Origin: Alitta virens
Lineage: Eukaryota; Annelida; Polychaeta; Phyllodocida; Nereididae
Direction of reading: 5' to 3'
Assembly: GCA_932294295.1 (NCBI GenBank)
Contig: OW028574.1
Coordinates: forward strand, 26,792,145-26,856,144
DNA: 64,000 nt
Shown here: positions 1 to 64,000 of the stretch, piece by piece
How the letters are laid out: each line of letters opens with the position of its first letter
How positions within the stretch are numbered: position 1 is the stretch's first letter
The notes under the pieces: generated by a model
Told to the model about the DNA's origin: nothing
Database searches by the model: none
Seen by the model: only the letters and a program-made list of their open reading frames with translations
Position numbers and translations under genes: made by a program

Positions 1-14
1 GACAGCTTAATGTT

Positions 15-25640: not shown

Positions 25641-25649
25641 TTGACAGCT

Positions 25650-41175: not shown

Positions 41176-43140
41176 TGTTGTTAACTGTTAATGTTGTTAA
41201 CTGTTAATGTTGTTAACTGTTAATGTTGTTAACTGTTAATGTTGTAAACTGTTAATGTTGTTAACTGTTAATGTTGTTAACTGTTAATGTTGTTAACTGT
41301 TAATGTTGCCAGCTTAATGTTGTTGACAGCTTAATGTTGACAGCCTAACGTTGTTGACGGTTAATTTTGACAACTTAATTTTCACAACTTAATGTTGACA
41401 GCTCAATGTTGACAGCTTAATGTTGTTGACAGCTTAATGTTGTTGATAGCTTAATGTTGTTGACAGCTTAATGTTGACAGCTTAATGTTGACAGCTTAAT
41501 GTTGACAGCTTAATGTTGACAGCTTAATGTTGACAGCCTAATGTTGACAGCCTAAAGTTGACAGCTTAATGTTGACAGCTTAATGTTGACAGCTTAATGT
41601 TGACAACTTATTGTTGACAGCTTAATGTTGACAGCTTATTGTTGACAGCTTAATGTTGACAGCTTAATGTTGACAGCTTAATGTTGACAGCCTAATGTTG
41701 ACAGCCTAAAGTTGACAGCTTAATGTTGACAGCTTAATGTTGACAGCTTAATGTTGACAACTTATTGTTGACAGCTTAATGTTGACAGCTTAATGTTGAC
41801 AGCCTAATGTTGACAGGCTAATGTTGACAGCTTAATGTTGACAGCTTAATGTTGACAGCTTAATGTTGACAGCTTAATGTTGACAGCTTAATGTTGACAG
41901 CTTAATGTTGTTAACTGTTAATGTTGTTAACTGTTAATGTTGTAAACTGTTAATGTTGCCAGCTTATTGTTGTTGACAGCTTAATGTTGTTGATAGCTTA
42001 ATGTTGACAGCCTAATATTGACAGGCTAATGTTGACAGCTTAGTGTTGACAGCTTAATGTTGACAGCTTAATGTTGACAGCTTAATGTTGACAGCTTAAT
42101 GTTGACAGCTTAATGTTGACAGCTTAATGTTGACAGCTTAATGTTGACAGCTTAATGTTGACAGCTTAATGTTGACAGCTTAATGGTGACAGCTTAATGG
42201 TGACAGCTTAATGGTGACAGCTTAATGTTGTTGATAGCTTAATGTTGTTGATAGCTTAATGTTGACAGCATAATGTTGTTGACAGCTTAATGTTGTTGAT
42301 AGCTTAATGTTGTTGATAGCTTAATGTTGACAGCTTAATGTTGACAGCTTAATGTTGTTGACAGCTTAATGTTTACAGCTTAATGTTGACAGCTTAATGT
42401 TGACAGCTTAATGTTGACAGCTTATTGTTGACAGCGTATTGTTGACAGCTTAATGTTGACAGCTTAGTGTTGACAGCCTAATGTTGACAGCCTAATGTTG
42501 ACAGCTTAATGTTGACAGCTTAATGTTGACAGCTTAATGTTGACAGCTTAATGCTGACAGCTTAATGTTGACAGCCTATTGTTGACAGCTTAATGTTGTT
42601 GAGAGCTTAATGTTGACAGCTTAATGTTGACAGCTTAATGTTGACAGCTTAATGTTGTTAACTGTTAATGTTGTTAACTGTTAATGTTGTTAACTGTTAA
42701 TGTTGTTAATTGTTAATGTTGTTAACTGTTAATGTTGTTAACTGTTAATGTTGTAAACTGTTAATGTTGTAAACTGTTAATGTTGTTAACTGTTAATGTT
42801 GTTAACTGTTAATGTTGCCAGCTTAATGTTGTTGCCAGCTTAATGTTGTTGACAGCTTAATGTTGACAGCCTAATGTTGTTGACGGTTAATTTTGACAAC
42901 TTAATTTTCACAACTTAATGTTGACAGCTCAATGTTGACAGCTTAATGTTGTTGACAGCTTAATGTTGTTGATAGCTTAATGTTGTTGATAGCTTAATGT
43001 TGACAGCTTATTGTTGACAGCTTAATGTTGACAGCTTAATGTTGACAGCTTAATGTTGACAGCCTAATGTTGACAGCCTAAAGTTGACAGCTTAATGTTG
43101 ACAGGCTAATGTTGACAGCTTAATGTTGACAGCTTAATGT
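39210..43140 (+). repeat. Tandem duplication, about 2.0-kb unit
   Basis: The segments at about 39,210-41,175 and 41,176-43,140 are adjacent copies. CCTAACGTTG occurs at 39,382 and 41,344 (1,962 bp) and GTTTACAGC at 40,367 and 42,371 (2,004 bp). The 42-bp growth equals three 14-bp units. A third relative lies at about 45.0-47.0 kb, with CCTAACGTTG at 45,196 and GTTTACAGC at 46,195. CCTAACG is confined to these three copies, so they share an ancestor not shared with 28.6 kb. Confidence 0.8.
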
Positions 43141-43999
43141 TGACAGCTTAATGTTGACAGCTTAATGTTGACAGCTTAATGTTGACAGCTTAATGTTGAC
43201 AGCTTAATGTTGACAGCTTAATGTTGTTAACTGTTAATGTTGTTAACTGTTAATGTTGTAAACTGTTAATGTTGCCAGCTTATTGTTGTTGACAGCTTAA
43301 TGTTGTTGATAGCTTAATGTTGACAGCTTAATGTTGACAGCTTAATGTTGTTGACAGCCTAATTTTGTTGACAGCTTAATGTTGACAGCTTAATGTTGAC
43401 AGCTTAATGTTGACAGCTTAATGTTGACAGCTTAATGTTGACAGCTTAATGTTGACAGCTTAATGTTGACAGCTTAATGTTGACAGCTTAATGTTGTTAA
43501 CTGTTAATGTTGTAAACTGCTAATGTTGCCAGCTTATTGTTGTTGACAGCTTAATGTTGTTGATAGCTTAATGTTGACAGCTTAATGTTGTTGACAGCTT
43601 AATTTTGTTGACAGCTTAATGTTGACAGCTTAATGTTGACAGCTTAATGTTGACAGCTTAATGTTGACAGCTTAATGTTGACAGCTTAATGTTGACAGCT
43701 TAATGTTAACAGCTTAATGTTGACAGCTTAATGTTGACAGCTTTATGTTGACAGCTTAATGTTGACAGCTTAATGTTGACAGCTTAATGTTGACAGCCTA
43801 AAGTTGACAGCCTAATGTTGACAGCTTAATGTTGTTGACGGTTAATTTTGACAGCTTAATGTTGTTGACAGCTTAATGTTGTTGCCAGCTTAATGTTGTT
43901 GACAGCTTAATGTTGACAGCTTAATGTTGACAGCTTAATGTTGACAGCTTAATGTTGACAGCTTAATGTTGACAGCTTATTGTTGACAGCTTATTGTTG

Positions 44000-46900
44000 A
44001 CAGCTTAATGTTGCCAGCTTAATGTTGTTGACAGCTCAATGTTGACAGCTTAATGTTGTTGACAGCTTAATGTTGTTGATAGCTTAATGTTGTTGATAGC
44101 TTAATGTTGACAGCTTAATGTTGTTAACTGTTAATGTTGTTAACTGTTAATGTTGTTAACTGTTAATATTGTAAACTGTTAATGTTGTTAACTGTTAATG
44201 TTGTTAACTGTTAATGTTGTTAACTGTTAATGTTGTTAACTGTTAATGTTGCCAGCTTAATGTTGTTACCAGCTTAATGTTGTTGACAGCTTAATGTTGA
44301 CATCCTAATGTTGTTGACGGTTAATTTTGACAACTTAATTTTCACAACTTAATGTTGACAGCTTAATGTTGACAGCTTAATGTTGTTGACAGCTTAATGT
44401 TGTTGATAGCTTAATGTTGTTGATAGCTTAATGTTGACAGCTTAATGTTGACAGCTTAATGTTGACAGCTTAATGTTGTTGACAGCTTAATGTTGACAGC
44501 TTAATGTTGACAGCTTAATGTTGACAGCTTAATGTTGACAGCTTATTGTTGACAGCTTAATGTTGACAGCTTAATGTTGACAGCTTAATGTTGACAGCCT
44601 AATGTTGACAGCCTAAGGTTGACAGCTTAAGGTTGACAGCTTAATGTTGACAGCTTAATGTTGACAACTTATTGTTGACAGCTTAATGTTGACAGCTTAA
44701 TGTTGACAGCCTAATGTTGACAGGCTAATGTTGACAGCTTAATGTTGACAGCTTAATGTTGACAGCTTATTGTTGACAGCTTATTGTTGACAGCTTAATG
44801 TTGACAGCTTAGTGTTGACAGCCTAATGTTGACAGCCTAATGTTGACAGCTTAATGTTGACAGCTTAATGTTGACAGCTTAATGTTGACAGCTTAATGTT
44901 GACAGCTTAATGTTGACAGCCTATTGTTGACAGCCTATTGTTGACAGCTTAATGTTGTTGAAAGCTTAATGTTGACAGCTTAATGTTGACAGCTTAATGT
45001 TGACAGCTTAATGTTGTTAACTGTTAATGTTGTTAACTGTTAATGTTGTTAACTGTTAATGTTGTTAACTGTTAATGTTGTAAACTGTTAATGTTGTTAA
45101 CTGTTAATGTTGTTAACTGTTAATGTTGTTAACTGTTAATGTTGTTAACTGTTAATGTTGCCAGCTTAATGTTGTTGACAGCTTAATGTTGACAGCCTAA
45201 CGTTGTTGACGGTTAATTTTGACAACTTAATTTTCACAACTTAATGTTGACAGCTCAATGTTGACAGCTTAATGTTGTTGACAGCTTAATGTTGTTGATA
45301 GCTTAATGTTGTTGACAGCTTAATGTTGACAGCTTAATGTTGACAGCTTAATGTTGACAGCTTAATGTTGACAGCTTAATGTTGACAGCCTAATGTTGAC
45401 AGCCTAAAGTTGACAGCTTAATGTTGACAGCTTAATGTTGACAGCTTAATGTTGACAACTTATTGTTGACAGCTTAATGTTGACAGCTTATTGTTGACAG
45501 CTTAATGTTGACAGCTTAATGTTGACAGCTTAATGTTGACAGCCTAATGTTGACAGCCTAAAGTTGACAGCTTAATGTTGACAGCTTAATGTTGACAGCT
45601 TAATGTTGACAACTTATTGTTGACAGCTTAATGTTGACAGCTTAATGTTGACAGCCTAATGTTGACAGGCTAATGTTGACAGCTTAATGTTGACAGCTTA
45701 ATGTTGACAGCTTAATGTTGACAGCTTAATGTTGACAGCTTAATGTTGACAGCTTAATGTTGTTAACTGTTAATGTTGTTAACTGTTAATGTTGTAAACT
45801 GTTAATGTTGCCAGCTTATTGTTGTTGACAGCTTAATGTTGTTGATAGCTTAATGTTGACAGCCTAATATTGACAGGCTAATGTTGACAGCTTAGTGTTG
45901 ACAGCTTAATGTTGACAGCTTAATGTTGACAGCTTAATGTTGACAGCTTAATGTTGACAGCTTAATGTTGACAGCTTAATGTTGACAGCTTAATGTTGAC
46001 AGCTTAATGGTGACAGCTTAATGGTGACAGCTTAATGGTGACAGCTTAATGTTGTTGATAGCTTAATGTTGTTGATAGCTTAATGTTGACAGCATAATGT
46101 TGTTGACAGCTTAATGTTGTTGATAGCTTAATGTTGTTGATAGCTTAATGTTGACAGCTTAATGTTGACAGCTTAATGTTGTTGACAGCTTAATGTTTAC
46201 AGCTTAATGTTGACAGCTTAATGTTGACAGCTTAATGTTGACAGCTTATTGTTGACAGCGTATTGTTGACAGCTTAATGTTGACAGCTTAGTGTTGACAG
46301 CCTAATGTTGACAGCCTAATGTTGACAGCTTAATGTTGACAGCTTAATGTTGACAGCTTAATGTTGACAGCTTAATGCTGACAGCTTAATGTTGACAGCC
46401 TATTGTTGACAGCTTAATGTTGTTGAGAGCTTAATGTTGACAGCTTAATGTTGACAGCTTAATGTTGACAGCTTAATGTTGTTAACTGTTAATGTTGTTA
46501 ACTGTTAATGTTGTTAACTGTTAATGTTGTTAATTGTTAATGTTGTTAACTGTTAATGTTGTTAACTGTTAATGTTGTAAACTGTTAATGTTGTAAACTG
46601 TTAATGTTGTTAACTGTTAATGTTGTTAACTGTTAATGTTGCCAGCTTAATGTTGTTGCCAGCTTAATGTTGTTGACAGCTTAATGTTGACAGCCTAATG
46701 TTGTTGACGGTTAATTTTGACAACTTAATTTTCACAACTTAATGTTGACAGCTCAATGTTGACAGCTTAATGTTGTTGACAGCTTAATGTTGTTGATAGC
46801 TTAATGTTGTTGATAGCTTAATGTTGACAGCTTATTGTTGACAGCTTAATGTTGACAGCTTAATGTTGACAGCTTAATGTTGACAGCCTAATGTTGACAG

Positions 46901-48520
46901 CCTAAAGTTGACAGCTTAATGTTGACAGGCTAATGTTGACAGCTTAATGTTGACAGCTTAATGTTGACAGCTTAATGTTGACAGCTTAATGTTGACAGCT
47001 TAATGTTGACAGCTTAATGTTGACAGCTTAATGTTGACAGCTTAATGTTGTTAACTGTTAATGTTGTTAACTGTTAATGTTGTAAACTGTTAATGTTGCC
47101 AGCTTATTGTTGTTGACAGCTTAATGTTGTTGATAGCTTAATGTTGACAGCTTAATGTTGACAGCTTAATGTTGTTGACAGCCTAATTTTGTTGACAGCT
47201 TAATGTTGACAGCTTAATGTTGACAGCTTAATGTTGACAGCTTAATGTTGACAGCTTAATGTTGACAGCTTAATGTTGACAGCTTAATGTTGACAGCTTA
47301 ATGTTGACAGCTTAATGTTGTTAACTGTTAATGTTGTAAACTGCTAATGTTGCCAGCTTATTGTTGTTGACAGCTTAATGTTGTTGATAGCTTAATGTTG
47401 ACAGCTTAATGTTGTTGACAGCTTAATTTTGTTGACAGCTTAATGTTGACAGCTTAATGTTGACAGCTTAATGTTGACAGCTTAATGTTGACAGCTTAAT
47501 GTTGACAGCTTAATGTTGACAGCTTAATGTTGACAGCTTAATGTTAACAGCTTAATGTTGACAGCTTAATGTTGACAGCTTTATGTTGACAGCTTAATGT
47601 TGACAGCTTAATGTTGACAGCTTAATGTTGACAGCCTAAAGTTGACAGCCTAATGTTGACAGCTTAATGTTGTTGACGGTTAATTTTGACAGCTTAATGT
47701 TGTTGACAGCTTAATGTTGTTGCCAGCTTAATGTTGTTGACAGCTTAATGTTGACAGCCTAATATTGTTGACAGTTAATTTTGACAGCTTAATGTTGTTG
47801 ACAGCTTAATGTTGTTGACAGCTTAATGTTGACAGCCTAAAGTTGACAGCCTAATGTTGACAGCTTAATGTTGTTGACGGTTAATTTTGACAGCTTAATG
47901 TTGTTGACAGCTTAATGTTGTTGCCAGCTTAATGTTGTTGACAGCTTAATGTTGACAGCTTAATGTTGTTGATAGCTTAATGTTGTTGATAGCTTAATGT
48001 TGACAGCTTAATGTTGACAGCTTAATGTTGTTGACAGCTTAATGTTGACAGCTTAATGTTGACAGCTTAATGTTGACAGCTTAATGGTGACAGCTTAATG
48101 TTGTTGATAGCTTAATGTTGTTGATAGCTTAATGTTGACAGCATAATGTTGTTGACAGCTTAATGTTGTTGATAGCTTAATGTTGTTGATAGCTTAATGT
48201 TGACAGCTTAATGTTGACAGCTTAATGTTGTTGACAGCTTAATGTTGACAGCTTAATGTTGACAGCTTAATGTTGACAGCTTAATGTTGACAGCTTAATG
48301 TTGACAGCTTACTGTTGACAGCTTATTGTTGACAGCTTAATGTTGACAGCTTAGTGTTGACAGCCTAATGTTGACAGCCTAATGTTGACAGCTTAATGTT
48401 GACAGCTTAATGTTGACAGCTTAATGTTGACAGCTTAATGCTGACAGCTTAATGTTGACAGCCTATTGTTGACAGCTTAATGTTGTTGAAAGCTTAATGT
48501 TGACAGCTTAATGTTGACAG
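44000..48520 (+). repeat. Segmental copy B2
   Basis: The partner of 27,440-31,950 (offset about 16.56 kb) and partly of 38.2-41.1 kb. It carries CCTAACGTTG (45,196), which links it to 39.4 and 41.3 kb, but it continues through GACAGCTTTATG (about 47,575) and the GACGGTTAATTTT pairs (about 47,670 and 47,880) as 30.9-31.4 kb does. It therefore looks chimeric. A private doubling of GCCTATTGTTGACA lies near 44,925-44,945. Confidence 0.75.
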
Positions 48521-49980
48521 CTTAATGTTGACAGCTTAATGTTGTTAACTGTTAATGTTGTTAACTGTTAATGTTGTTTACTGTTAATGTTGTTAACTGT
48601 TAATGTTGTAAACTGTTAATGTTGTTAACTGTTAATGTTGTTAACTGTTAATGCTGTTAACTGGTAATGCTGTTAACTGTTAATGTTGCCAGCTTAATGT
48701 TGTTGCCAGCTTAATGTTGTTGACAGCTTAATGTTGACAGCCTAATGTTGTTGACGGTTAATTTTGACAACTTAATTTTCACAACTTAATGTTGACAGCT
48801 CAATGTTGACAGCTTAATGTTGTTGACAGCTTAATGTTGTTGATAGCTTATTGTTGTTGATAGCTTAATGTTGACAGCTTAATGTTGACAGCTTAATGTT
48901 GACAGCTTAATGTTGACAGCTTATTGTTGACAGCTTATTGTTGACAGCTTAATGTTGACAGCTTAATGTTGACAGCTTAATGTTGTTAACTGTTAATGTT
49001 GTTAACTGTTAATGTTGTTAACTGTTAATGTTGTTAACTGTTAATGTTGTTAACTGTTAATATTGTAAACTGTTAATGTTGTTAACTGTTAATGTTGTTA
49101 ACTGTTAATGTTGTTAACTGTTAATGTTGTTAACTGTTAATGTTGTTAACTGTTAATGTTGTTAACTGTTAATGTTGTTAACTGTTAATGTTGTTAACTG
49201 TTAATGTTGTTAACTGTTAATGTTGTTAACTGTTAATGTTGTTAACTGTTAATGTTGCCAGCTTAATGTTGTTGCCAGCTTAATGTTGTTGACAGCTCAA
49301 TGTTGACAGCTTAATGTTGTTGACAGCTTAATGTTGTTGATAGCTTAATGTTGTTGATAGCTTAATGTTGACAGCTTAATGTTGACAGCTTAATGTTGTT
49401 GACAGCTTAATGTTGACAGCTTAATGTTGACAGCTTAATGTTGACAGCTTAATGTTGACAGCTTATTGTTGACAGCTTAATGTTGACAGCTTAATGTTGA
49501 CAGCTTAATGTTGACAGCTTAATGTTGACAGCTTAATGTTGACAGCTTAATGTTGACAGCTTAATGTTGACAGCTTAATGTTGACAGCCTAAAGTTGACA
49601 GCCTAATGTTGACAGCTTAATGTTGTTGACGGTTAATTTTGACAGCTTAATGTTGTTGACAGCTTAATGTTGTTGCCAGCTTAATGTTGTTGACAGCTTA
49701 ATGTTGACAGCCTAATATTGTTGACAGTTAATTTTGACAGCTTAATGTTGTTGACAGCTTAATGTTGTTGACAGCTTAATGTTGACAGCCTAAAGTTGAC
49801 AGCCTAATGTTGACAGCTTAATGTTGTTGACGGTTAATTTTGACAGCTTAATGTTGTTGACAGCTTAATGTTGTTGCCAGCTTAATGTTGTTGACAGCTT
49901 AATGTTGACAGCCTAATATTGTTGACAGTTAATTTTGACAGCTTAATGTTGTTGACAGCATAATGTTGTTGACAGCTTAA
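47600..49980 (+). repeat. Terminal block like 18.4-20.9 kb
   Basis: The last ordered block before the array edge follows the marker order of the end of HOR copy 3: AGCTTTATG, AGCCTAAAG, GACGGTTAATTTT, single AATGGTGAC, AGCTTACTG, GTTGAAAGC, GCTGTTAAC doublet, GTTGCCAGC, the CACAAC module, an expanded 16-mer run, then two AGCCTAAAG/GACGGTTAATTTT modules (about 49,588 and 49,793). AGCCTAAAG at 20,500 and 49,588 are 29,088 bp apart. It carries private changes (GTTTACTG near 48,577, CTGGTAATG near 48,661). Confidence 0.7.
48985..49256 (+). repeat. Longest run of 16-bp GTTAAC units (17 units)
   Basis: An uninterrupted run of exactly 272 bp, or 17 units of GTTAACTGTTAATGTT, with one GTAAACTG unit in sixth place preceded by AATATT. 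Equivalent runs elsewhere have about 11-14 units with the GTAAAC unit at about the same place (for example 35,524-35,747 with 14). The extra units lie after the GTAAAC unit, so growth was one-sided. Each unit contains the palindrome GTTAAC. Confidence 0.88.
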
Positions 49981-50068
49981 TGTTGACAGCTTAATGTTGA
50001 CAGCTTAATGTTGACAGCTTAATGTTGACAGCTTAATGTTGACAGCTTAATGTTGACAGCTTAATGTT

Positions 50069-50153
50069 GTCGATAGCTTAATGTTGTCGATTGCTTAATG
50101 TTGTCGACTGCTTAATGTTGTCGACTGCTTAATGTTGTCGACTGCTTAATGTT
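50069..50153 (+). repeat. Edge-specific GTCGA units of the 14-bp family
   Basis: The final five units before the boundary are 17 bp each: GTCGATAGCTTAATGTT (50,069), GTCGATTGCTTAATGTT (50,086), then GTCGACTGCTTAATGTT three times (50,103, 50,120, 50,137). I saw the GTCGA start nowhere else in the array, where the equivalent unit starts GTTGA. They form a stepwise series GATAGC, GATTGC, GACTGC. Array-end units often diverge because they escape homogenisation. Confidence 0.93.
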
Positions 50154-50265
50154 AAATTTACAAGGGTACACAGCCATGTAGGAAGCGCATTTAGCAGTGA
50201 AATGCCATGGACAGTGCCGCTTAAGTAGGGAAGTTAGTCTGGATGTGCAGCGATAGCTTTGCTCG
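50154..50265 (+). repeat. Diverged first partial unit of the 278-bp array
   Basis: Starts at AAATTTACAAGGGTACACAGCC, against the usual AAATTATCAAGAGTACACAGCC, and spans 112 bp to the next unit start where normal units span 89. It has many private changes (AAGCGCATTTAGC for AAGTGCACTTAGC, CCATGGACAGTGCC for the usual CCAGACTCACAG) and about 23 extra bases around 50,240-50,264. Those extra bases include CGATAGCTT, which also occurs in the neighbouring GTCGATAGCTTAATG unit. It is an old edge unit or the scar of the junction event. Confidence 0.85.
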
Positions 50266-51377
50266 GTCCACTTAGCACAGCCAATGAGAGGAAGAGGACC
50301 AAGCGTGCATTATGATAGCCACGTGGGGCACTCGTGCGTAGCGGGGTCAAGGCCGTTGCAGAGAGCCAGGATGCTGACAAGAAAACAAACGACAACAACG
50401 CAACACAAAAGTGAAATACTCTCGTCAGGGAACGACGTGGCACAGTTAAATTATCAAGAGTACACAAAAATGTAGGAAGTGCACTTAGCAGTGAGATGCC
50501 AGACTCACAGGCCGCGCCGATGAAGTAGTAAGTTAGGTCCACTTAGCACAGCCAATGAGAGGCAGAGGACGAAGCGTGCAATATGATAGCCACGTGGGGC
50601 ACTCGTGCGTAGCGGTATCAAGGCCATTGTAGAGGGCCAGGATGCTGACAAGAAAACTAACGACAACAACGCGACACCAAAGTGAAACACTCTATAGTAG
50701 CGTCAGGGAACGACTTGACACAGTTAAATTATCAAGAGTTCACAGCCATGTAGGAAGTGCACTGAGCAGTGAGATGCAAGACTCACAGACCGCGCCGATG
50801 AAGTAGTAAGTTAGGTCCACTTAGCACAGCCAATGAGAGACAGAGGACGAAGCGTGCAGTATGATAGCTACGTGGGGCACTCGTGCGTTGCGGGGTCAAG
50901 GCCGATGTAGAGGGCCAGGATGCTGACAAGAAAACCAACGACAACAACGCAACACTAAAGTGAAATACTCTATAATAGCCTTATAGAATGACGTGGCACA
51001 GTTAAATTATCAAGAGTACACAGCCATGTAAGAAGTGCACTAAGCAGTGAGATGCCAGACTCACAGACCGCGCCGATTAAGTAGTAAGGTAGGTCCACTT
51101 GGCACAGCCAATGAGAGGCAGAGGACGAAGCGTGCATTATGATAGCCACGTGGGGCACTCGTGCGTAGCGGGGTCAAGGCCGTTGCAGAGAGCCAGGATG
51201 CTGACAAGAAAACAAACGACAACAACGCAACACCGAAGTGAAATACTCTATAGTAGCGTCAGGGAACGACGTGGCACAGTTAAATTATCAAGAGTACACA
51301 AAAATGTAGGAAGTGCACTTAGCAGTGAGATGCCAGACTCACAGGCCGCGCCAATGAAGTAGTAAGTAAGGTCCACT

Positions 51378-51541
51378 TAGCACAGCCAATGAGAGGCAGA
51401 GGGCGAAGCGTGCATTATGATAGCTACGTGCGGCACTCGTGCGTTGCGGGGTCAAGGCCGTTGTAGAGGGCCAGGATGCTGACAAGAAAACTAACGACAA
51501 CAACGCAACACCGAAGTTAAATACTCTATAATAGCCTTTTG
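51378..51541 (+). promoter_or_regulatory. Possible degenerate Pol III A/B boxes in the 278-bp monomer
   Basis: TAGCACAGCCA (51,378-51,388) matches 10 of 11 positions of the A-box pattern TRGYNNARNNG. GGGTCAAGGCC (51,449-51,459) matches 9 of 11 positions of the B box GGTTCRANTCC. They are about 71 bp apart in the right order, and TTTT, a Pol III stop, follows at 51,537-51,540. The same pieces are present in most monomers, but TTTT is found only in the GCCTTTT subtypes. The satellite could descend from a tRNA-derived SINE, or this could be chance. No transcript is shown by the sequence. Confidence 0.2.
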
Positions 51542-51549
51542 GAACGAAG
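51533..51549 (-). other. CENP-B-box-like 17-mer in one monomer subtype
   Basis: On the minus strand this reads CTTCGTTCCAAAAGGCT. Against the canonical mammalian CENP-B box (CTTCGTTGGAAACGGGA) 12 of 17 bases agree. Of the nine bases needed for binding (TTCG, A, CGGG) seven agree; two of CGGG are changed. Exact copies lie at 54,280, 55,669, 56,778, 58,009, 60,078 and 62,280, with a one-base variant at 53,324. Only the GCCTTTTGGAACGAAG subtype has it. The resemblance may be chance, and the two core mismatches argue against binding by a mammalian-type CENP-B. Confidence 0.3.
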
Positions 51550-51814
51550 TGGCACAGTTAAATTATCAAGAGTACACAGCCATGTAGGAAGTGCACTTAG
51601 CAGTGAGATGCCAGACTCACACACCGCGCCGATTAAGCAGCAAGTTATGTCCACTTGGCACAGCCAATGAGAGGCAGAGGACGAAGCGTGCATTATGATA
51701 GCCACGTGGGGCACTCGTGCGTAGCGGGGTCAAGGCCGTTGCAGAGAGCCAGGATGCTGACAAGAAAACTAACGACAACAACGCGACACCAAAGTGAAAC
51801 ACTCTATAATAGCC

Positions 51815-51936
51815 TTATGTTAGTCACGTGGGGCACTCGTGCGTAGCGGGGTCAAGGCCGTTGTAGAGGGCCAGGATGCTGACAAGAAAACCAACGACAA
51901 CAACGCAACACTAAAGTGAAATACTCTATAATAGCC
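51815..51936 (+). repeat. 122-bp partial monomer joined at TTATG
   Basis: A partial unit inserted in a monomer, producing 400- and 404-bp spacings. It begins at TTATG in GCCTTATGTTAGTCACG and ends where GCCTTATGGAATG resumes; 51,937 minus 51,815 is exactly 122. It contains the CACGTG-to-CTATAATAGCC part of a monomer. The join looks like recombination between TTATG in ...GCCTTATG... and TTATG in ...CATTATGATAGCC.... Similar units start at 53,606, 54,709, 57,049, 58,280, 58,962, 60,360, 61,042, 61,602, 62,551 and 63,233. All share the private TTAGT change, so one event was amplified. Confidence 0.9.
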
Positions 51937-54306
51937 TTATGGAATGACGTGGCACAGTTAAATCATCAAGAGTACACACACAGCCATGTAGGAAGTGCAC
52001 TTAGCAGTGAGATGCCAGACTCACAGGCCGCGCCGATGAAGTAGTAAGGTAGGTGCACTTAGCACAGCCAATGAGAGGAAGAGGACGAAGCATGCATTAT
52101 GATAACCGCGTGGGGCACTCGTGCGTAGCGGGGTCAAGGCCGTTGCAGAGAGCCAGGATGCTGACAAGAAAACAAACGACAACAACGCAACACCGAAGTG
52201 AAATACTCTATAATAGCCTTTTGCAACGACGTGGCACAGTTAAATTATCAAAAGTACACACACAGCCATGTAGGAAGTGCACTAAGCAGTGAGATGCCAG
52301 ACTTGCAGACCGCGCCGATTAAGTAGTAAGGTAGGTCCACTTGGCACAGCCAATGAGAGGCAGAGGACGAAGCGTGCATTATGATAGCCACGTGGGGCAC
52401 TCGTGCGTAGCGGGGTCAAGGCCGTTGCAGAGAGCCAGGATGCTGACAAGAAAACAAACGACAACAACGCAACACCGAAGTGAAATACTCTATAGTAGCG
52501 TCAGGGAACGACGTGGCACACTTAAATTATCAAGAGTACACAAAAATGTAGGAAGTGCACTTAGCAGTGAGATGCCAGACTCACAGGCCGCGCCGATGAA
52601 GTAGTAAGTAAGGTCCACTTAGCACAGCCAATGAGAGGAAGAGGACCAAGCGTGCATTATGATAGCCACGTGGGGCACTCGTGCGTAGCGGGGTCAAGGC
52701 CGTTGCAGAGAGCCAGGATGTTGACAAGAAAACAAACGACAACAACGCAACACTAAAGTGAAATACTCTCGTCAGGGAACGACGTGGCACAGTTAAATTA
52801 TCAAGAGTACACAGCCATGTAGGAAGTGCACTTAGCAGTGAGATGCCAGACTCACAGGCCGCGCCGATGAAGTAGTAAGTTAGGTCCACTTAGCACAGCC
52901 AATGAGAGGCAGAGGACGAAGCGTGCAATATGATAGCCACGTGGGGCACTCGTGCGTAGCGGTATCAAGGCCATTGTAGAGGGCCAGGATGCTGACAAGA
53001 AAACTAACGACAACAACGCGACACCGAAGTTAAACACTCTATAGTAGCGTCAGGGAACGACTTGACACAGTTAAATTATCAAGAGTTCACAGCCATGTAG
53101 GAAGTGCACTGAGCAGTGAGATGCCAGACTCACAGACCGCGCCGATGAAGTAGTAAGTTAGGTCCACTTAGCACAGCCAATGAGAGACAGAGGACGAAGC
53201 GTGCAGTATGATAGCTATGTGGGGCACTCGTGCGTTGCGGGGTCAAGGCCGATGTAGAGGGCCAGGATGCTGACAAGAAAACTAACGACAACAACGCAAC
53301 ACCGAAGTTAAATACTCTATAATAGCCTTTTAGAACGAAGTGGCCCAGTTAAATTATCAAGAGTACACAGTCATGTTGGAAGTGCACTTAGCAGTGAGAT
53401 GCCAGACTCACAGACCGCGCCGATTAAGCAGCAAGTTATGTCCACTTAGCACAGCCAATGAGAGGAAGAGGACGAAGCGTGCAATATGATAGCCACGAGG
53501 GGCACTCGTGCGTAGCGGTGTCAAGGCCGTTGTAGAGGGCCAGGATGCTGACAAGAAAACTAACGACAACAACGCGACACTAAAGTGAAACTCTCTATAA
53601 TAGCCTTATGTTAGTCATGTGGGGCACTCGTGCGTAGCGGGGTCAAGGCCGTTGTAGAGGGCCAGGATGCTGACAAGAAAACCAACGACGACAACGCAAC
53701 ACTAAAGTGAAATACTCTATAATAGCCTTATAGAATGACGTGGCACAGTTAAATTATCAAGAGTACACAGCCATGTAGGAAGTGCACTAAGCAGTGAGAT
53801 GCCAGACTCACAGACCGCGCCGATTAAGTAGTAAGGTAGGTCCACTTGGCACAGCCAATGAGATGCAGAGGACGAAGCGTGCATTATGATAGCCATGTGG
53901 GGCACTCGTGCGTAGCGGGGTCAAGGCCGTTGCAGAGAGCCAGGATGCTGACAAGAAAACAAACGACAACAACGCAACACCGAAGTGAAATACTCTATAG
54001 TAGCGTCAGGGAACGACGTGGCACAGTTAAATTATCAAGAGTACACAAAAATGTAGGAAGTGCACTTAGCAGTGAGATGCCAGACTCACAGGCCGCGCCA
54101 ATGAAGTAGTAAGTAAGGTCCACTTAGCACAGCCAATGAGAGGCAGAGGACGAAGCGTGCATTATGATAGCTACGTGCGGCACTCGTGCGTTGCGGGGTC
54201 AAGGCCGTTGTAGAGGGCCAGGATGCTGACAAGAAAACTAACGACAACAACGCAACACCGAAGTTAAATACTCTATAATAGCCTTTTGGAACGAAGTGGC
54301 ACAGTT

Positions 54307-54453
54307 AAGCAGGGAATAACGAAGCTAATGTTGACAGCTTAATGTTGACAGCTTAATGTTGACAGCTTAATGTTGACAGCCTAAAGTTGACAGCCTAATG
54401 TTGACAGCTTAATGTTGTTGACGGTTAATTTTGACAGCTTAATGTTGACAGCT
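54307..54453 (+). repeat. 147-bp island of 14-bp-family satellite inside the 278-bp array
   Basis: The host monomer reads GGCACAGTTAA up to 54,308 and resumes with AAATTATCAAG at 54,454. Between them lie 16 bp of unexplained sequence (GCAGGGAATAACGAAG, 54,309-54,324) and about 129 bp of 14-bp-family units. The unit order is CTAATGTT, three plain units, AGCCTAAAG, AGCCTAATG, a plain unit, the GTTGACGGTTAATTTT unit, a plain unit and GACAGCT. The AGCCTAAAG to GACGGTTAATTTT order is the same as at 49,588 and several other places in region 1. The matching empty site is 51,554-51,570, exactly 2,747 bp upstream. The filler partly resembles CAGGGAACGACG in the monomer. Confidence 0.95.
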
Positions 54454-54946
54454 AAATTATCAAGAGTACACAGCCATGTAGGAAGTGCACTTAGCAGTGA
54501 GATGCCAGACTCACACACCGCGCCGATTAAGCAGCAAGTTATGTCCACTTGGCACAGCCAATGAGAGGCAGAGGACGAAGCGTGCATTATGATAGCCACG
54601 TGGGGCACTCGTGCGTAGCGGGGTCAAGGCCGTTGCAGAGAGCCAGGATGCTGACAAGAAAACTAACGACAACAACGCGACACCAAAGTGAAACACTCTA
54701 TAATAGCCTTATGTTAGTCACGTGGGGCACTCGTGCGTAGCGGGGTCAAGGCCGTTGTAGAGGGCCAGGATGCTGACAAGAAAACCAACGACAACAACGC
54801 AACACTAAAGTGAAATACTCTATAATAGCCTTATGGAATGACGTGGCACAGTTAAATCATCAAGAGTACACACACAGCCATGTAGGAAGTGCACTTAGCA
54901 GTGAGATGCCAGACTCACAGGCCGCGCCGATGAAGTAGTAAGGTAG

Positions 54947-57900
54947 GTGCACTTAGCACAGCCAATGAGAGGAAGAGGACGAAGCATGCATTATGATAAC
55001 CACGTGGGGCACTCGTGCGTAGCGGGGTCAAGGCCGTTGCAGAGAGCCAGGATGCTGACAAGAAAACAAACGACAACAACGCAACACCGAAGTGAAATAC
55101 TCTATAATAGCCTTTTGCAACGACGTGGCACAGTTAAATTATCAAAAGTACACACACAGCCATGTAGGAAGTGCACTAAGCAGTGAGATGCCAGACTTGC
55201 AGACCGCGCCGATTAAGTAGTAAGGTAGGTCCACTTGGCACAGCCAATGAGAGGCAGAGGACGAAGCGTGCATTATGATAGCCACGTGGGGCACTCGTGC
55301 GTAGCGGGGTCAAGGCCGTTGCAGAGAGCCAGGATGCTGACAAGAAAACAAAGGACAACAACGCAACACCGAAGTGAAATACTCTATAGTAGCGTCAGGG
55401 AACGACGTGGCACAGTTAAATTATCAAGAGTACACAAAAATGTAGGAAGTGCACTTAGCAGTGAGATGCCAGACTCACAGGCCGCGCCGATGAAGTAGTA
55501 AGTAAGGTCCACTTAGCACAGCCAATGAGAGGCAGAGGACGAAGCGTGCATTATGATAGCCACGTGGGGCACTCGTGCGTAGCGGGGTCAAGGCCGTTGG
55601 AGAGGGCCAGGATGCTGACAAGAAAACTAACGACAACAACGCAACACCGAAGTTAAATACTCTATAATAGCCTTTTGGAACGAAGTGGCACAGTTAAATT
55701 ATCAAGAGTACACAGCCATGTAGGAAGTGCACTTAGCAGACTCACACACCGCGCCGATTAAGCAGCAAGTTATGTCCACTTAGCACAGCCAATGAGAGGA
55801 AGAGGACGAAGCGTGCAATATGATAGCCACGTGGGGCAATCGTGCGTAGCGGTGTCAAGGCCGTTGTAGAGGGCCAGGATGCTGACAAGAAAACTAACGA
55901 CAACAACGCGACACCAAAGTGAAATACTCTATAATAGCCTTATGGAATGACGTGGCACAGTTAAATCATCAAGAGTACACACACAGCCATGTAGGAAGTG
56001 CACTTAGCAGTGAGATGCCAGACTCACAGGCCGCGCCGATGAAGTAGTAAGGTAGGTGCACTTAGCACAGCCAATGAGAGGAAGAGGACGAGGCATGCAT
56101 TATGATAACCACGTGGGGCACTCGTGCGTAGCGGGGTCAAGGCTGTTGCAGAGAGCCAGGATGCTGACAAGAAAACAAACGACAACAACGCAACACCGAA
56201 GTGAAATACTCTATAATAGCCTTTTGCAACGACGTGGCACAGTTAAATTATCAAAAGTACACACACAGCCATGTAGGAAGTGCACTAAGCAGTGACATGC
56301 CAGACTTGCAGACCGCGCCGATTAAGTAGTAAGGTAGGTCCACTTGGCACAGCCAATGAGAGGAAGAGGACGAAGCGTGCATTATGATAGCCACGTGGGG
56401 CACTCATGCGTAGCGGGGTCAAGGCCGTTGCAGAGAGCCAGGATGCTGACAAGAAAACAAACGACAACAACGCAACACCGAAGTGAAATACTCTATAGTA
56501 GCGTCAGGGAACGACGTGGCACAGTTAAATTATCAAGAGTACACAAAAATGTAGGAAGTGCACTTAGCAGTGAGATGCCAGACTCACAGGCCGCGCCGAT
56601 GAAGTAGTAAGTAAGGTCCACTTAGCACAGCCAATGAGAGGCAGAGGACGAAGCGTGCATTATGATAGCCACGTGGGGCACTCGTGCGTAGCGGGGTCAA
56701 GGCCGTTGGAGAGGGCCAGGATGCTGACAAGAAAACTAACGACAACAACGCAACACCGAAGTTAAATACTCTATAATAGCCTTTTGGAACGAAGTGGCAC
56801 AGTTAAATTATCAAGAGTACACAGCCATGTAGGAAGTGCACTTAGCAGACTCACACACCGCGCCGATTAAGCAGCAAGTTATGTCCACTTAGCACAGCCA
56901 ATGAGAGGAAGAGGACGAAGCGTGCAATATGATAGCCACGTGGGGCAATCGTGCGTAGCGGTGTCAAGGCCGTTGTAGAGGGCCAGGATGCTGACAAGAA
57001 AACTAACGACAACAACGCGACACCAAAGTGAAACACTCTATAATAGCCTTATGTTAGTCACGTGGGGCACTCGTGCGTAGCGGGGTCAAGGCCGTTGTAG
57101 AGGGCCAGGATGCTGACAAGAAAACCAACGACAACAACGCAACACTAAAGTGAAATACTCTATAATAGCCTTATGGAATGACGTGGCACAGTTAAATCAT
57201 CAAGAGTACACACACAGCCATGTAGGAAGTGCACTTAGCAGTGAGATGCCAGACTCACAGGCCGCGCCGATGAAGTAGTAAGGTAGGTGCACTTAGCACA
57301 GCCAATGAGAGGAAGAGGACGAAGCATGCATTATGATAACCACGTGGGGCACTCGTGCGTAGCGGGGTCAAGGCCGTTGCAGAGAGCCAGGATGCTGACA
57401 AGAAAACAAACGACAACAACGCAACACCGAAGTGAAATACTCTATAATAGCCTTTTGCAACGACGTGGCACAGTTAAATTATCAAAAGTACACACACAGC
57501 CATGTAGGAAGTGCACTAAGCAGTGAGATGCCAGACTTGCAGACCGCGCCGATTAAGTAGTAAGGTAGGTCCACTTGGCACAGCCAATGAGAGGAAGAGG
57601 ACGAAGCGTGCATTATGATAGCCACGTGGGGCACTCATGCGTAGCGGGGTCAAGGCCGTTGCAGAGAGCCAGGATGCTGACAAGAAAACAAACGACAACA
57701 ACGCAACACCGAAGTGAAATACTCTATAGTAGCGTCAGGGAACGACGTGGCACAGTTAAATTATCAAGAGTACACAAAAATGTAGGAAGTGCACTTAGCA
57801 GTGAGATGCCAGACTCACAGGCCGCGCCGATGAAGTAGTAAGTAAGGTCCACTTAGCACAGCCAATGAGAGGCAGAGGACGAAGCGTGCATTATGATAGC

Positions 57901-58517
57901 CACGTGGGGCACTCGTGCGTAGCGGGGTCAAGGCCGTTGGAGAGGGCCAGGATGCTGACAAGAAAACTAACGACAACAACGCAACACCGAAGTTAAATAC
58001 TCTATAATAGCCTTTTGGAACGAAGTGGCACAGTTAAATTATCAAGAGTACACAGCCATGTAGGAAGTGCACTTAGCAGACTCACACACCGCGCCGATTA
58101 AGCAGCAAGTTATGTCCACTTAGCACAGCCAATGAGAGGAAGAGGACGAAGCGTGCAATATGATAGCCACGTGGGGCAATCGTGCGTAGCGGTGTCAAGG
58201 CCGTTGTAGAGGGCCAGGATGCTGACAAGAAAACTAACGACAACAACGCGACACCAAAGTGAAACACTCTATAATAGCCTTATGTTAGTCACGTGGGGCA
58301 CTCGTGCGTAGCGGGGTCAAGGCCGTTGTAGAGGGCCAGGATGCTGACAAGAAAACCAACGACAACAACGCAACACTAAAGTGAAATACTCTATAATAGC
58401 CTTATGGAATGACGTGGCACAGTTAAATCATCAAGAGTACACACACAGCCATGTAGGAAGTGCACTTAGCAGTGAAATGCCAGACTCACAGGCCGCGCCG
58501 ATGAAGTAGTAAGGTAG
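54947..58517 (+). repeat. 1,231-bp higher-order repeat of the 278-bp family
   Basis: Units start at 56,056, 56,338, 56,616, 56,883, 57,287, 57,569, 57,847, 58,114 and 58,518. The spacing pattern 282-278-267-404 totals 1,231 bp and closes twice (56,056-57,286 and 57,287-58,517; the opening 282 of the second copy follows its 404). The preceding stretch 54,947-56,055 is the same four-monomer unit without the 122-bp partial piece (1,109 bp). The two full copies differ at only a few bases, for example CGAGGCATGC at about 56,088 against CGAAGCATGC. Confidence 0.88.
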
Positions 58518-61500
58518 GTGCACTTAGCACAGCCAATGAGAGGAAGAGGACGAAGCATGCATTATGATAACCACGTGGGGCACTCGTGCGTAGCGGGGTC
58601 AAGGCCGTTGCAGAGAGCCAGGATGCTGACAAGAAAACAAACGACAACAACGCAACACCGAAGTGAAATACTCTATAGTAGCGTCAGGGAACGACGTGAC
58701 ACAGTTAAATTATCAAGAGTACACAGCCATGTAGGAAGTGCACTTAGCAGTGAGATGCCAGACTCACAGACCGCGCCGATTAAGCAGCATGTTATGTCCA
58801 CTTAGCACAGCCAATGAGAGGAAGAGGACGAAGCGTGCAATATGATAGCCACGAGGGGCACTCGTGCGTAGCGGTGTCAAGGCCGTTGTAGAGGGCCAGG
58901 ATGCTGACAAGAAAACTAACGACAACAACGCGACACTAAAGTGAAACACTCTATAATAGCCTTATGTTAGTCACGTGGGGCACTCGTGCGTAGCAGGGTC
59001 AAGGCCGTTGTAGAGGGCCAGGATGCTGACAAGAAAACCAACGACAACAACGCAACACTAAAGTGAAATACTCTATAATAGCCTTATAGAATGACGTGGC
59101 ACAGTTAAATTATCAAGAGTACACAGCCATGTAGGAAGTGCACTAAGCAGTGAGATGCCAGACTCACAGACCGCGCCGATTAAGTAGTAAGGTAGGTCCA
59201 CTTGGCACAGCCAATCAGAGGCAGAGGACGAAGCGTGCATTATGATAGCCACGTGGGGCACTCGTGCGTAGCGGGGTCAAGGCCGTTGCAGAGGGAAGTG
59301 CACTTAGCAGTGAGATGCCAGACTCACAGGCCGCGCCGATGAAGTAGTAAGTTAGGTCCGCTTAACACAGCCAATGAGAGGCAGAGGACGAAGCGTGCAA
59401 TATGATAGCCACGTGGGGCACTCATGCGTAGCGGGGTCAAGGCCATTGTAGAGGGCCAGGATGCTGAAAAGAAAACTAACGACAACAACGCAACACCGAA
59501 GTTAAATACTCTATAATAGCCTTTTGCAACGACGTGGCACAGTTAAATTATCAAAAGTACACACACAGCCATGTAGGAAGTGCACTAAGCAGTGAGATGC
59601 CAGACTCGCAGACCGCGCCGATTAAGTAGTAAGGTAGGTGCACTTGGCACAGCCAATGAGAGGCAGAGGACGAAGCGTGCATTATGATAGCCACGTGGGG
59701 CACTCGTGCGTAGCGGGGTCAAGGCCGTTGCAGAGAGCCAGGATGCTGACAAGAAAACAAACGACAACAACGCAACACCGAAGTGAAATACTCTATAGTA
59801 GCGTCAGGGAACGACGTGGCACAGTTAAATTATCAAGAGTACACAAAAATGTAGGAAGTGCACTTAGCAGTGAGATGCCAGACTCACAGGCCGCGCCGAT
59901 GAAGTAGTAAGTAAGGTCCACTTAGCACAGCCAATGAGAGGCAGAGGACGAAGCGTGCATTATGATAGCCACGTGGGGCACTCTTGCTTAGCGGGGTCAA
60001 GGCCGTTGGAGAGGGCCAGGATGCTGACAAGAAAACTAACGACAACAACGCAACACCGAAGTTAAATACTCTATAATAGCCTTTTGGAACGAAGTGGCAC
60101 AGTTAAATTATCAAGAGCACACAGCCATGTAGGAAGTGCACTAAGCAGTGAGATGCCAGACTCACACACCGCGCCGATTAAGCAGCAAGTTATGTCCACT
60201 TAGCACAGCCAATGAGAGGAAGAGGACGAAGCGTGCAATATGATAGCCACGTGGGGCAATCGTGCGTAGCGGTGTCAAGGCCGTTGTAGAGGGCCAGGAT
60301 GCTGACAAGAAAACTAACGACAACAACGCGACACCAAAGTGAAACACTCTATAATAGCCTTATGTTAGTCACGTGGGGCACTCGTGCGTAGCGGGGTCAA
60401 GGCCGTTGTAGAGGGCCAGGATGCTGACAAGAAAACCAACGACAACAACGCAACACTAAAGTGAAATACTCTATAATAGCCTTATGGAATGACGTGGCAC
60501 AGTTAAATCATCAAGAGTACACACACAGCCATGTAGGAAGTGCACTTAGCAGTGAGATGCCAGACTCACAGTCCGCGCCGATGAAGTAGTAAGGTAGGTG
60601 CACTTAGCACAGCCAATGAGAGGAAGAGGACGAAGCATGCATTATGATAACCACGTGGGGCACTCGTGCGTAGCGGGGTCAAGGCCGTTGCAGAGAGCCA
60701 GGATGCTGACAAGAAAACAAACGACAACAACGCAACACCGAAGTGAAATACTCTATAGTAGCGTCAGGGAACGACGTGACACAGTTAAATTATCAAGAGT
60801 ACACAGCCATGTAGGAAGTGCACTTAGCAGTGAGATGCCAGACTCACAGACCGCGCCGATTAAGCAGCATGTTATGTCCACTTAGCACAGCCAATGAGAG
60901 GAAGAGGACGAAGCGTGCAATATGATAGCCACGAGGGGCACTCGTGCGTAGCGGTGTCAAGGCCGTTGTAGAGGGCCAGGATGCTGACAAGAAAACTAAC
61001 GACAACAACGCGACACTAAAGTGAAACACTCTATAATAGCCTTATGTTAGTTACGTGGGGCACTCGTGCGTAGCAGGGTCAAGGCCGTTTTAGAGGGCCA
61101 GGATGCTGACAAGAAAACCAACGACAACAACGCAACACTAAAGTGAAATACTCTATAATAGCCTTATAGAATGACGTGGCACAGTTAAATTATCAAGAGT
61201 ACACAGCCATGTAGGAAGTGCACTAAGCAGTGAGATGCCAGACTCACAGACCGCGCCGATTAAGTAGTAAGGTAGGTCCACTTGGCACAGCCAATCAGAG
61301 GCAGAGGACGAAGCGTGCATTATGATAGCCACATGGGGCACTCGTGCGTAGCGGGGTCAAGGCCGTTGCAGAGGGAAGTGCACTTAGCAGTGAGATGCCA
61401 GACTCACACACCGCGCCGATTAAGCAGCAAGTTATGTCCAATTAGCACAGCCAATGAGAGGAAGAGGACGAAGCGTGCAATATGATAGCCACGTGGGGCA

Positions 61501-64000
61501 ATCGTGCGTAGCGGTGTCAAGGCCGTTTTAGAGGGCCAGGATGCCGACAAGAAAACTAACGACAACAACGCGACACCAAAGTGAAACACTCTATAATAGC
61601 CTTATGTTAGTCACGTGGGGCACTCGTGCGTAGCGGGGTCAAGGCCGTTGTAGAGGGCCAGGATGCTGACAAGAAAACAAACGACAACAACGCAACACCG
61701 AAGTGAAATACTCTATAATAGCCTTTTGCAACGACGTGGCACAGTTAAATTATCAAAAGTACACACACAGCCATGTAGGAAGTGCACTAAGCAGTGAGAT
61801 GCCAGACTTGCAGACCGCGCCGATTAAGTAGTAAGGTAGGTCCACTTGGCACAGCCAATGAGAGGAAGAGGACGAAGCGTGCATTATGATAGCCACGTGG
61901 GGCACTCATGCGTAGCGGGGTCAAGGCCGTTGCAGAGAGCCAGGATGCTGACAAGAAAACAAACGACAACAACGCAACACCGAAGTGAAATACTCTATAG
62001 TAGCGTCAGGGAACGACGTGGCACAGTTAAATTATCAAGAGTACACAAAAATGTAGGAAGTGCACTTAGCAGTGAGATGCCAGACTCACAGGCCGCGCCG
62101 ATGAAGTAGTAAGTAAGGTCCACTTAGCACAGCCAATGAGAGGCAGAGGACGAAGCGTGCATTATGATAGCCACGTGGGGCACTCGGGCGTAGCGGGGTC
62201 AAGGCCGTTGGAGAGGGCCAGGATGCTGACAAGAAAACTAACGACAACAACGCAACACCGAAGTTAAATACTCTATAATAGCCTTTTGGAACGAAGTGGC
62301 ACAGTTAAATTATCAAGAGTACACAGCCATGTAGGAAGTGCACTTAGCAGACTCACACACCGCGCCGATTAAGCAGCAAGTTATGTCCACTTAGCACAGC
62401 CAATGAGAGGAAGAGGACGAAGCGTGCAATATGATAGCCACGTGGGGCAATCGTGCGTAGCGGTGTCAAGGCCGTTGTAGAGGGCCAGGATGCTGACAAG
62501 AAAACTAACGACAACAACGCGACACCAAAGTGAAACACTCTATAATAGCCTTATGTTAGTCACGTGGGGCACTCGTGCGTAGCGGGGTCAAGGCCGTTGT
62601 AGAGGGCCAGGATGCTGACAAGAAAACCAACGACAACAACGCAACACTAAAGTGAAATACTCTATAATAGCCTTATGGAATGACGTGGCACAGTTAAATC
62701 ATCAAGAGTACACACACAGCCATGTAGGAAGTGCACTTAGCAGTGAAATGCCAGACTCACAGGCCGCGCCGATGAAGTAGTAAGGTAGGTGCACTTAGCA
62801 CAGCCAATGAGAGGAAGAGGACGAAGCATGCATTATGATAACCACGTGGGGCACTCGTGCGTAGCGGGGTCAAGGCCGTTGCAGAGAGCCAGGATGCTGA
62901 CAAGAAAACAAACGACAACAACGCAACACCGAAGTGAAATACTCTATAGTAGCGTCAGGGAACGACGTGACACAGTTAAATTATCAAGAGTACACAGCCA
63001 TGTAGGAAGTGCACTTAGCAGTGAGATGCCAGACTCACAGACCGCGCCGATTAAGCAGCATGTTATGTCCACTTAGCACAGCCAATGAGAGGAAGAGGAC
63101 GAAGCGTGCAATATGATAGCCACGAGGGGCACTCGTGCGTAGCGGTGTCAAGGCCGTTGTAGAGGGCCAGGATGCTGACAAGAAAACTAACGACAACAAC
63201 GCGACACTAAAGTGAAACACTCTATAATAGCCTTATGTTAGTCACGTGGGGCACTCGTGCGTAGCAGGGTCAAGGCCGTTGTAGAGGGCCAGGATGCTGA
63301 CAAGAAAACCAACGACAACAACGCAACACTAAAGTGAAATACTCTATAATAGCCTTATAGAATGACGTGGCACAGTTAAATTATCAAGAGTACACAGCCA
63401 TGTAGGAAGTGCACTAAGCAGTGAGATGCCAGACTCACAGACCGCGCCGATTAAGTAGTAAGGTAGGTCCACTTGGCACAGCCAATCAGAGGCAGAGGAC
63501 GAAGCGTGCATTATGATAGCCACGTGGGGCACTCGTGCGTAGCGGGGTCAAGGCCGTTGCAGAGGGAAGTGCACTTAGCAGTGAGATGCCAGACTCACAG
63601 GCCGCGCCGATGAAGTAGTAAGTTAGGTCCGCTTAACACAGCCAATGAGAGGCAGAGGACGAAGCGTGCAATATGATAGCCACGTGGGGCACTCATGCGT
63701 AGCGGGGTCAAGGCCATTGTAGAGGGCCAGGATGCTGAAAAGAAAACTAACGACAACAACGCAACACCGAAGTTAAATACTCTATAATAGCCTTTTGCAA
63801 CGACGTGGCACAGTTAAATTATCAAAAGTACACACACAGCCATGTAGGAAGTGCACTAAGCAGTGAGATGCCAGACTCGCAGACCGCGCCGATTAAGTAG
63901 TAAGGTAGGTGCACTTGGCACAGCCAATGAGAGGCAGAGGACGAAGCGTGCATTATGATAGCCACGTGGGGCACTCGTGCGTAGCGGGGTCAAGGCCGTT
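57390..64000 (+). repeat. 4,271-bp segmental duplication reaching the window edge
   Basis: The segment from about 57,390 to 59,729 recurs at about 61,661-64,000. Unit starts 57,569/61,840, 57,847/62,118, 58,114/62,385, 58,518/62,789 and 59,638/63,909 all differ by 4,271, and the private GTGAAATGCC change is at 58,472 and 62,743. A middle relative starts at 60,598 (2,080 after 58,518 and 2,191 before 62,789) but switches type near 61,400. The left junction lies between 61,645 and 61,672, where a GTAGAGGGCCAGG subtype joins an AAAACAAACG subtype. Confidence 0.87.
59196..59355 (+). repeat. 160-bp deleted monomer
   Basis: This unit goes from GGCCGTTGCAGAGG directly to GAAGTGCACTTAGC, missing 118 bp between the GAGGG after the GGTCAAGGCC stretch and the GTAGGAAGTGC segment. 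AGG is shared at the breakpoint. The same junction recurs in the 160-bp units starting at 61,276 and 63,467. The copy at 61,276 is followed by a different downstream subtype (CACACACCGCGCC, then GTTATGTCCAATTAGC), so the deletion has been spread by exchange between non-identical units. Confidence 0.88.

What the first reader, a model, noticed from the sequence alone, without database searches (positions are those of the whole stretch)
54307..54453. Island of the 14-bp satellite inserted in the 278-bp array, with a dated empty site
Seen directly: 147 bp of foreign satellite plus filler interrupt one monomer, while the otherwise matching copy exactly 2,747 bp upstream (51,554-51,570) is uninterrupted. 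The island keeps the AGCCTAAAG, AGCCTAATG, GACGGTTAATTTT order of region 1, so it was captured from that array. It could be a seed from which a new 14-bp array grows, or a scar of repair or extrachromosomal-circle re-integration. The other possibility, precise loss from the upstream copy, is less simple.
Basis: partly seen in the sequence, partly recalled or inferred. Interest (0 to 1): 0.75.

Follow-up and report, generated by a model that had tools for sequence, protein, structure and literature searches.

The report
Short satellite inserted in another satellite
A scrap of one tandem repeat was inserted once into a neighbouring tandem repeat, probably as a DNA-repair patch, and the array's own reshuffling then copied it to six places while its number of units changed; a clear example of how mixed satellites begin, but of an already known kind.

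Summary
A 147-bp island (16-17 nt filler, then a piece of the 14-bp satellite) interrupts one 278-bp monomer at CACAGT-TAA-[island]-TAA-ATTATC, while the matching monomer at 51559 is uninterrupted. 122 bp match the neighbouring 14-bp array exactly. Of 611 monomer sites in 214 kb read in full, 5 carry it; the sixth lies 248 kb further on. So there was one insertion, then spread by duplication and unequal exchange. Island length is 147, 161 or 189 bp; 147 is probably ancestral, so two lineages gained one and three units. A flank tree puts the 51559 copy beside, not inside, the island copies (weak split), which favours gain over loss. The window copy joins the left context of copy 2 to the right context of copy 3, so an exchange took place in or near the island. 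The insertion step itself (repair patch, template switch or circle re-integration) is inferred. Known in principle: Rsp-like within 1.688 arrays in Drosophila.

The parts
54306..54308 (+). TAA at the left edge of the island, last bases of CACAGTTAA of the host monomer
   Evidence: alignment to the empty copy
54309..54325 (+). Filler GCAGGGAATAACGAAG plus C; not in the 14-bp array
   Evidence: six exact copies of the 16-mer in the genome, each in an island
54326..54447 (+). 122 bp identical to the 14-bp array
   Evidence: exact match at window 7124, 12595, 20446, 49534
54448..54452 (+). ACAGC, end of the island; the source copies read TTGACAGC here
54453..54455 (+). TAA at the right edge, start of TAAATTATC of the host monomer
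   Evidence: junction word found six times in the genome
51559..51561 (+). Empty site (TAA) in the most similar uninterrupted copy
49534..49655 (+). Nearest of the four window stretches that match the island exactly over 122 bp (donor family; donor itself not identified)
50149..50158 (+). Boundary of the 14-bp and 278-bp arrays, at the same monomer phase as the island's right junction
1..50153 (+). 14-bp satellite array (continues upstream of the window)
50154..64000 (+). 278-bp satellite array (continues downstream of the window)

Best explanation
A single insertion of about 125-130 bp of the 14-bp satellite, with a 16-17 nt filler at its left end, happened at a TTAA-bearing site of one 278-bp monomer. 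It was most likely made while a break there was repaired: end joining with a captured or copied patch and a short filler, no host bases lost, TAA left on both sides (inferred). The patch belongs to the 14-bp family next door (shown); the exact donor is not known. The host monomer was then multiplied with its surroundings to six copies over 310 kb by tandem duplication and unequal exchange (shown by shared flanks). Meanwhile the number of 14-bp units inside changed to give 147, 161 and 189 bp (shown), most simply by gain from 147 (inferred). It has no evident function: it is a passenger and a marker of how the array turns over.
For: 122-bp exact match to the 14-bp array. Filler and right junction each six times in the genome, at the same six islands, all in one 278-bp array. 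606 of 611 monomer sites in 214 kb uninterrupted, 5 with island. Shared flanks and a 12,497-bp tandem duplication exact over 12,673 bp; window copy = left context of L002 (2,550 bp exact) + right context of L003 (5,892 bp exact). Three lengths with near-identical flanks. Empty copy 51559 shares no derived state with a subset of island copies and falls beside them in the tree. Short filler and patch are as in class 2 templated insertions (PMC5110952, passages) and polymerase-theta joining (PMC4912351, passages).
Against: No break or repair enzyme is seen; a static sequence cannot tell a repair patch from a template switch or a circle. The origin of the filler is unresolved: 7-mer cover is suggestive with three upstream monomers (26 of 5000 shuffles as good) but weaker with 4.1 kb (101 of 5000) or the own monomer (397 of 5000, 8 bases covered), and gapped alignment is not significant (66 to 137 of 500). 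The last island unit has no exact source in the genome. The split that sets 51559 outside the islands has support 70 and near-zero length.
Confidence: 0.65

Rival explanations
1. Replication template switching: the growing strand left the 278-bp monomer at ACAGTTAA, copied a stretch of the 14-bp array and returned to the same spot at TAA.
For: ACAGTTAA at the junction is one of few 8-bp words shared by the two satellites; return to the point of departure without loss.
Against: The filler is not explained by a simple switch between the two satellites.
Confidence: 0.15
2. Re-integration of a small extrachromosomal circle of 14-bp satellite.
For: Proposed for satellites in general (PMC10264360, passages).
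Against: No circle data; nothing in the island requires a circle, and its unit order is collinear with the linear array.
Confidence: 0.1
3. Exchange with a boundary of the two arrays: the island's right junction was inherited from a 14-bp/278-bp border and not made anew.
For: The boundary at 50154 enters the monomer at the same phase as the island's right junction.
Against: The last units and first monomer at that boundary are of other, divergent types; the right-hand boundary of the 278-bp array has another phase.
Confidence: 0.05
4. The island is ancestral and 51559 lost it precisely.
For: Gene conversion between -98 and +99 would leave no marker.
Against: Needs gain plus loss; 51559 shares no derived state with a subset of island copies; 17 further empties of the haplotype read at the junction lie outside the island copies.
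Confidence: 0.04
5. Assembly artefact.
For: Near-identical repeats are hard to assemble; the 12,497-bp duplication is exact.
Against: Six copies in four flank contexts, three lengths, same two junctions.
Confidence: 0.03
6. A mobile element that duplicates its target (TAA).
For: 3-bp TAA on both sides of the insert.
Against: No terminal inverted repeats seen by eye; one target site only in the genome; the interior is array sequence.
Confidence: 0.02

Closest known systems
Rsp-like satellite inserted within 1.688 satellite arrays, Drosophila simulans clade (Sproul et al. 2020, seen only through passages of PMC7919458; the paper itself is not held)
   Same: One satellite enters existing arrays of another.
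   Different: Here one site, six copies of one insertion and a sister empty copy; the fragment has only about 9 to 12 units. Family and organism differ.
Class 2 templated sequence insertions (PMC5110952, abstract and passages)
   Same: A patch from elsewhere at a presumed break, no target duplication of 5 bp or more, no poly(A).
   Different: Donor and target are both satellites; repair is inferred from an old event, not observed. The paper favours an RNA-derived patch in humans; not tested here.
Seeding and stepwise expansion of satellite arrays by circles or microhomology (PMC10264360, passages)
   Same: Idea of a short seed followed by gain of units.
   Different: Only gains of one and three units are seen here, and their direction is by parsimony.

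Membership tests
Templated/captured insertion (class 2 TSI-like) | Insert matches another genomic sequence | tested here: met
   122-bp exact match to the 14-bp array
Templated/captured insertion (class 2 TSI-like) | No target duplication of 5 bp or more and no poly(A) tract | tested here: met
   3-bp TAA only, no poly(A) in the island. If the final ACAGCTAA is read as host ACAGTTAA with one change, the duplication would be 8 bp with a mismatch; not excluded
Templated/captured insertion (class 2 TSI-like) | Repair marks at the junctions (microhomology, added bases, small deletion) | tested here: inconclusive
   Filler present; its origin unresolved; no host deletion
Templated/captured insertion (class 2 TSI-like) | Arises at a double-strand break | not testable with these tools
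   Needs experiment
Seed of a new satellite array | Unit number grows in place | tested here: inconclusive
   147, 161, 189 bp with near-identical flanks; direction by parsimony only; exchange with the main array not excluded
DNA transposon | Terminal inverted repeats and several target sites | tested here: not met
   Target sites: one only. Inverted repeats: looked for by eye only

The most novel reading that the evidence does not exclude
The TTAA phase of the 278-bp monomer is a recurrent exchange site between the two satellites: the island's right junction and the array boundary at 50154 fall at the same monomer position. Once seated, the 14-bp island also acts as a preferred place for unequal exchange (the window copy is a hybrid whose crossover interval holds the island), so that a foreign repeat scrap would steer how its host array is reshuffled.
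Probability: 0.12. Interest if true: 0.6.

Novelty: new member of a known kind. Interest (0 to 1): 0.4.

Why it matters
How a new satellite starts inside another is seldom seen with its empty state, donor family, several descendants and several lengths together. This locus gives all of these in one assembled array, so the order of events (insertion, duplication, unit gain, exchange) can be tested with reads from other individuals. The mechanism itself is ordinary for satellite DNA.

Tried and rejected
Uniqueness of the island: rejected, six copies. The 189-bp form as a direct copy of the similar unit order at C2:24.77-24.79 Mb: not supported; the longest exact match in the two stretches fetched there is 89 bp, and the GACGG unit does not follow. 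Precise loss from 51559: less simple. Fragments of the 278-bp family in the 14-bp array: 0 shared 11-mers in 60 kb, tested against a 4-kb sample of the 278-bp array. Other 14-bp fragments in the 214 kb of 278-bp array: none; the 5 clusters of 14-bp 12-mers are the known islands. The 14-bp satellite elsewhere: 0 exact matches of a 34-mer in genome contigs and viral contigs. Same junction phase at the far end of the 278-bp array: not met. Filler from the 14-bp array: no support (421 and 422 of 500 shuffles as good). Paper searches that listed no paper. Never answered: genome count of a 67-base donor word and the whole-monomer DNA search. No call was made to identify the organism.

Full report
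Observation. The window holds a 14-bp satellite (1 to about 50153) and a 278-bp satellite from there on. At 54306-54452, 147 bp interrupt a 278-bp monomer. Against the copy 2,747 bp upstream, an alignment of about 1,000 bp shows 2 substitutions and this one gap. The junctions read CACAGT-TAA-[GCAGGG...GACAGC]-TAA-ATTATC. The insert begins with a 16-nt filler plus C, then 122 bp identical to the 14-bp array at four places of the window (nearest 49534-49655), then ACAGC. In the source copies TTG stands before that ACAGC. A genome search for the island's last units followed by one more array unit gave 0, so the last five bases are either part of the junction or carry a small change.

Not unique. 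The genome has 671 Mb in 23 contigs; the window is C2:26,792,145-26,856,144. The filler occurs six times, all on C2: 26,846,453 (the window), 26,892,298, 26,896,358, 26,904,795, 26,908,855 and 27,156,951 (L001-L006). The right junction word also occurs six times, at the same six islands. For a 16-base word about 0.3 chance hits on both strands would be expected (my arithmetic, even base use). All six share near flanks, filler and end. In 264 contiguous kb, 611 sites of the form TAAAT.ATCAA(G/A) lie in the 278-bp array; 606 are uninterrupted and 5 carry the island; no other cluster of 14-bp 12-mers lies in those 214 kb. Monomers that do not fit the site pattern are not counted.

One origin, then spread. 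Island lengths are 147 (L001, L006), 161 (L003, L005) and 189 bp (L002, L004). L002/L003 and L004/L005 are the two copies of a 12,497-bp tandem duplication, exact over 12,673 bp. L001, the window copy, matches L002 exactly for 2,550 bp on the left and L003 exactly for 5,892 bp on the right; it matches L003 exactly for only 543 bp on the left and L002 for only 900 bp on the right. So L001 is a hybrid of the two, or they derive from an L001-like copy by duplication; in either case the exchange lies within -543 to +900 of the island. L001 and L002/L004 have 1,400 bp of left flank without a mismatch (right: 1 mismatch and 22 gap columns in 1,300) and 42 bp difference inside the island, so unit number changes faster than the flanks. 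L006, on the outer branch, and L001 both have the same 147-bp sequence; parsimony makes 147 ancestral and the others gains of one and three units. The 161-bp form matches the window array exactly over 136 bp at three places, the 189-bp form over 111 bp at one. The unit order special to the 189-bp form also occurs four times at C2:24.77-24.79 Mb in the 14-bp array, but exact agreement there ends after 89 bp; exchange with the main array is possible and not shown.

Polarity. Of 606 empty sites, the 60 nearest by a 300-bp prefilter were aligned over 1,000 bp: 51559 differs at 3 bases, the next at 20. For those 12, absence of the island rests on the exact words only. Of the 20, 17 are uninterrupted at the junction; 3 (L094, L095, L112) continue into a different unit and were left out of the tree. 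The tree of 27 sequences (6 island copies with the island removed, 51559, these 17, and 3 generic empties) puts 51559 outside the island copies (split 70, near-zero length) and sets island copies plus 51559 apart from all others (99). Five states at +96 to +186 are shared by all six island copies and, of the 18 empties of the haplotype, by 51559 alone. 51559 shares no derived state with a subset of island copies. Gain once is the simplest reading. Exchange within the array breaks the assumptions of a tree, and a conversion tract between the nearest common markers, -98 and +99, would be invisible. Dating is relative: 51559 differs from L006 and L001 at 4 and 6 of 1,263 bases; from L003 at 20, because the left flank of L003/L005 beyond -543 has another origin.

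Setting. Probes of 200-400 bp show the 14-bp array from between 24.2 and 24.5 Mb up to the window, and the 278-bp array from 26.842 to 28.116 Mb, with a reversed stretch near 27.25-27.26 Mb (DNA between probes not read). Then follow the 14-bp array in reverse orientation and a satellite of about 24 bp at the 28.20-28.48 Mb probes; the probes outside show neither satellite. In one search the 278-bp word set included the islands, which inflates that column for 14-bp probes; the assignment rests on the reads themselves. The left boundary of the 278-bp array enters the monomer at the same phase as the island's right junction; the right boundary does not. ACAGTTAA at that phase is one of few 8-bp words shared by the two satellites, which may explain the coincidence.

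Mechanism. Shown: family of the donor, one origin, spread, change of unit number, hybrid copy. Inferred: a break or a switch at the TTAA-bearing site, patched with 14-bp sequence and a short filler. The filler could be a mosaic of flanking 7-mers: 15 of 17 bases are covered by words of three upstream monomers (26 of 5000 shuffles as good) or of 4.1 kb (101 of 5000), but only 8 by the own monomer (397 of 5000), and gapped alignment to four 278-bp stretches gives 66 to 137 of 500. I leave its origin open. Circle re-integration and template switching would look much the same in a static sequence.

Compared with what is known. A passage of PMC7919458 reports Rsp-like inserted within 1.688 arrays; PMC5110952 (abstract and passages) describes class 2 templated insertions; PMC4912351 (abstract and passages) describes random and templated fillers made by polymerase theta; PMC10264360 (passages) proposes seeding by circles or microhomology. 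Passages of PMC7004042 and PMC10697818 were seen and add nothing decisive. That one satellite can enter another is therefore in print. In the listings of my searches I saw no case with six copies, three lengths and a sister empty site, but these searches are narrow and the library is partial.

Verdict. A real, well-preserved event of a known kind; ordinary in mechanism, useful as a dissected example.

Noticed in passing
C2:24.2-28.5 Mb, loci L029-L089: The 278-bp array is flanked on both sides by the 14-bp satellite in opposite orientations, with a satellite of about 24 bp (AACAACAAACCAAAAAAAGGTGTG) beyond the right arm; a mirror-like megabase block on a 69-Mb chromosome.
   Followed up: partly
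C2:27.250-27.260 Mb (L033; minus-strand words): A stretch of the 278-bp array lies in reverse orientation.
   Followed up: no
window 50154-50263 and L089:97-206: Both outer monomers of the 278-bp array carry the same longer, divergent variant (with GCGATAGCTTTGCT), as expected if array edges keep old monomers.
   Followed up: partly
window 50065-50150: The last 14-bp units before the boundary are of a special form (TTGTCGACTGCTTAATG), unlike the body of the array.
   Followed up: no
C2:26,889,902-26,902,574 and its copy 12,497 bp on: A tandem duplication exact over 12,673 bp, holding two islands: a very recent unequal exchange, or an assembly duplication.
   Followed up: partly
278-bp array, window 50265-64000: Many 278-bp units carry an internal 122-bp partial duplication (spacing 400), giving higher-order units of mixed spacing.
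   Followed up: no
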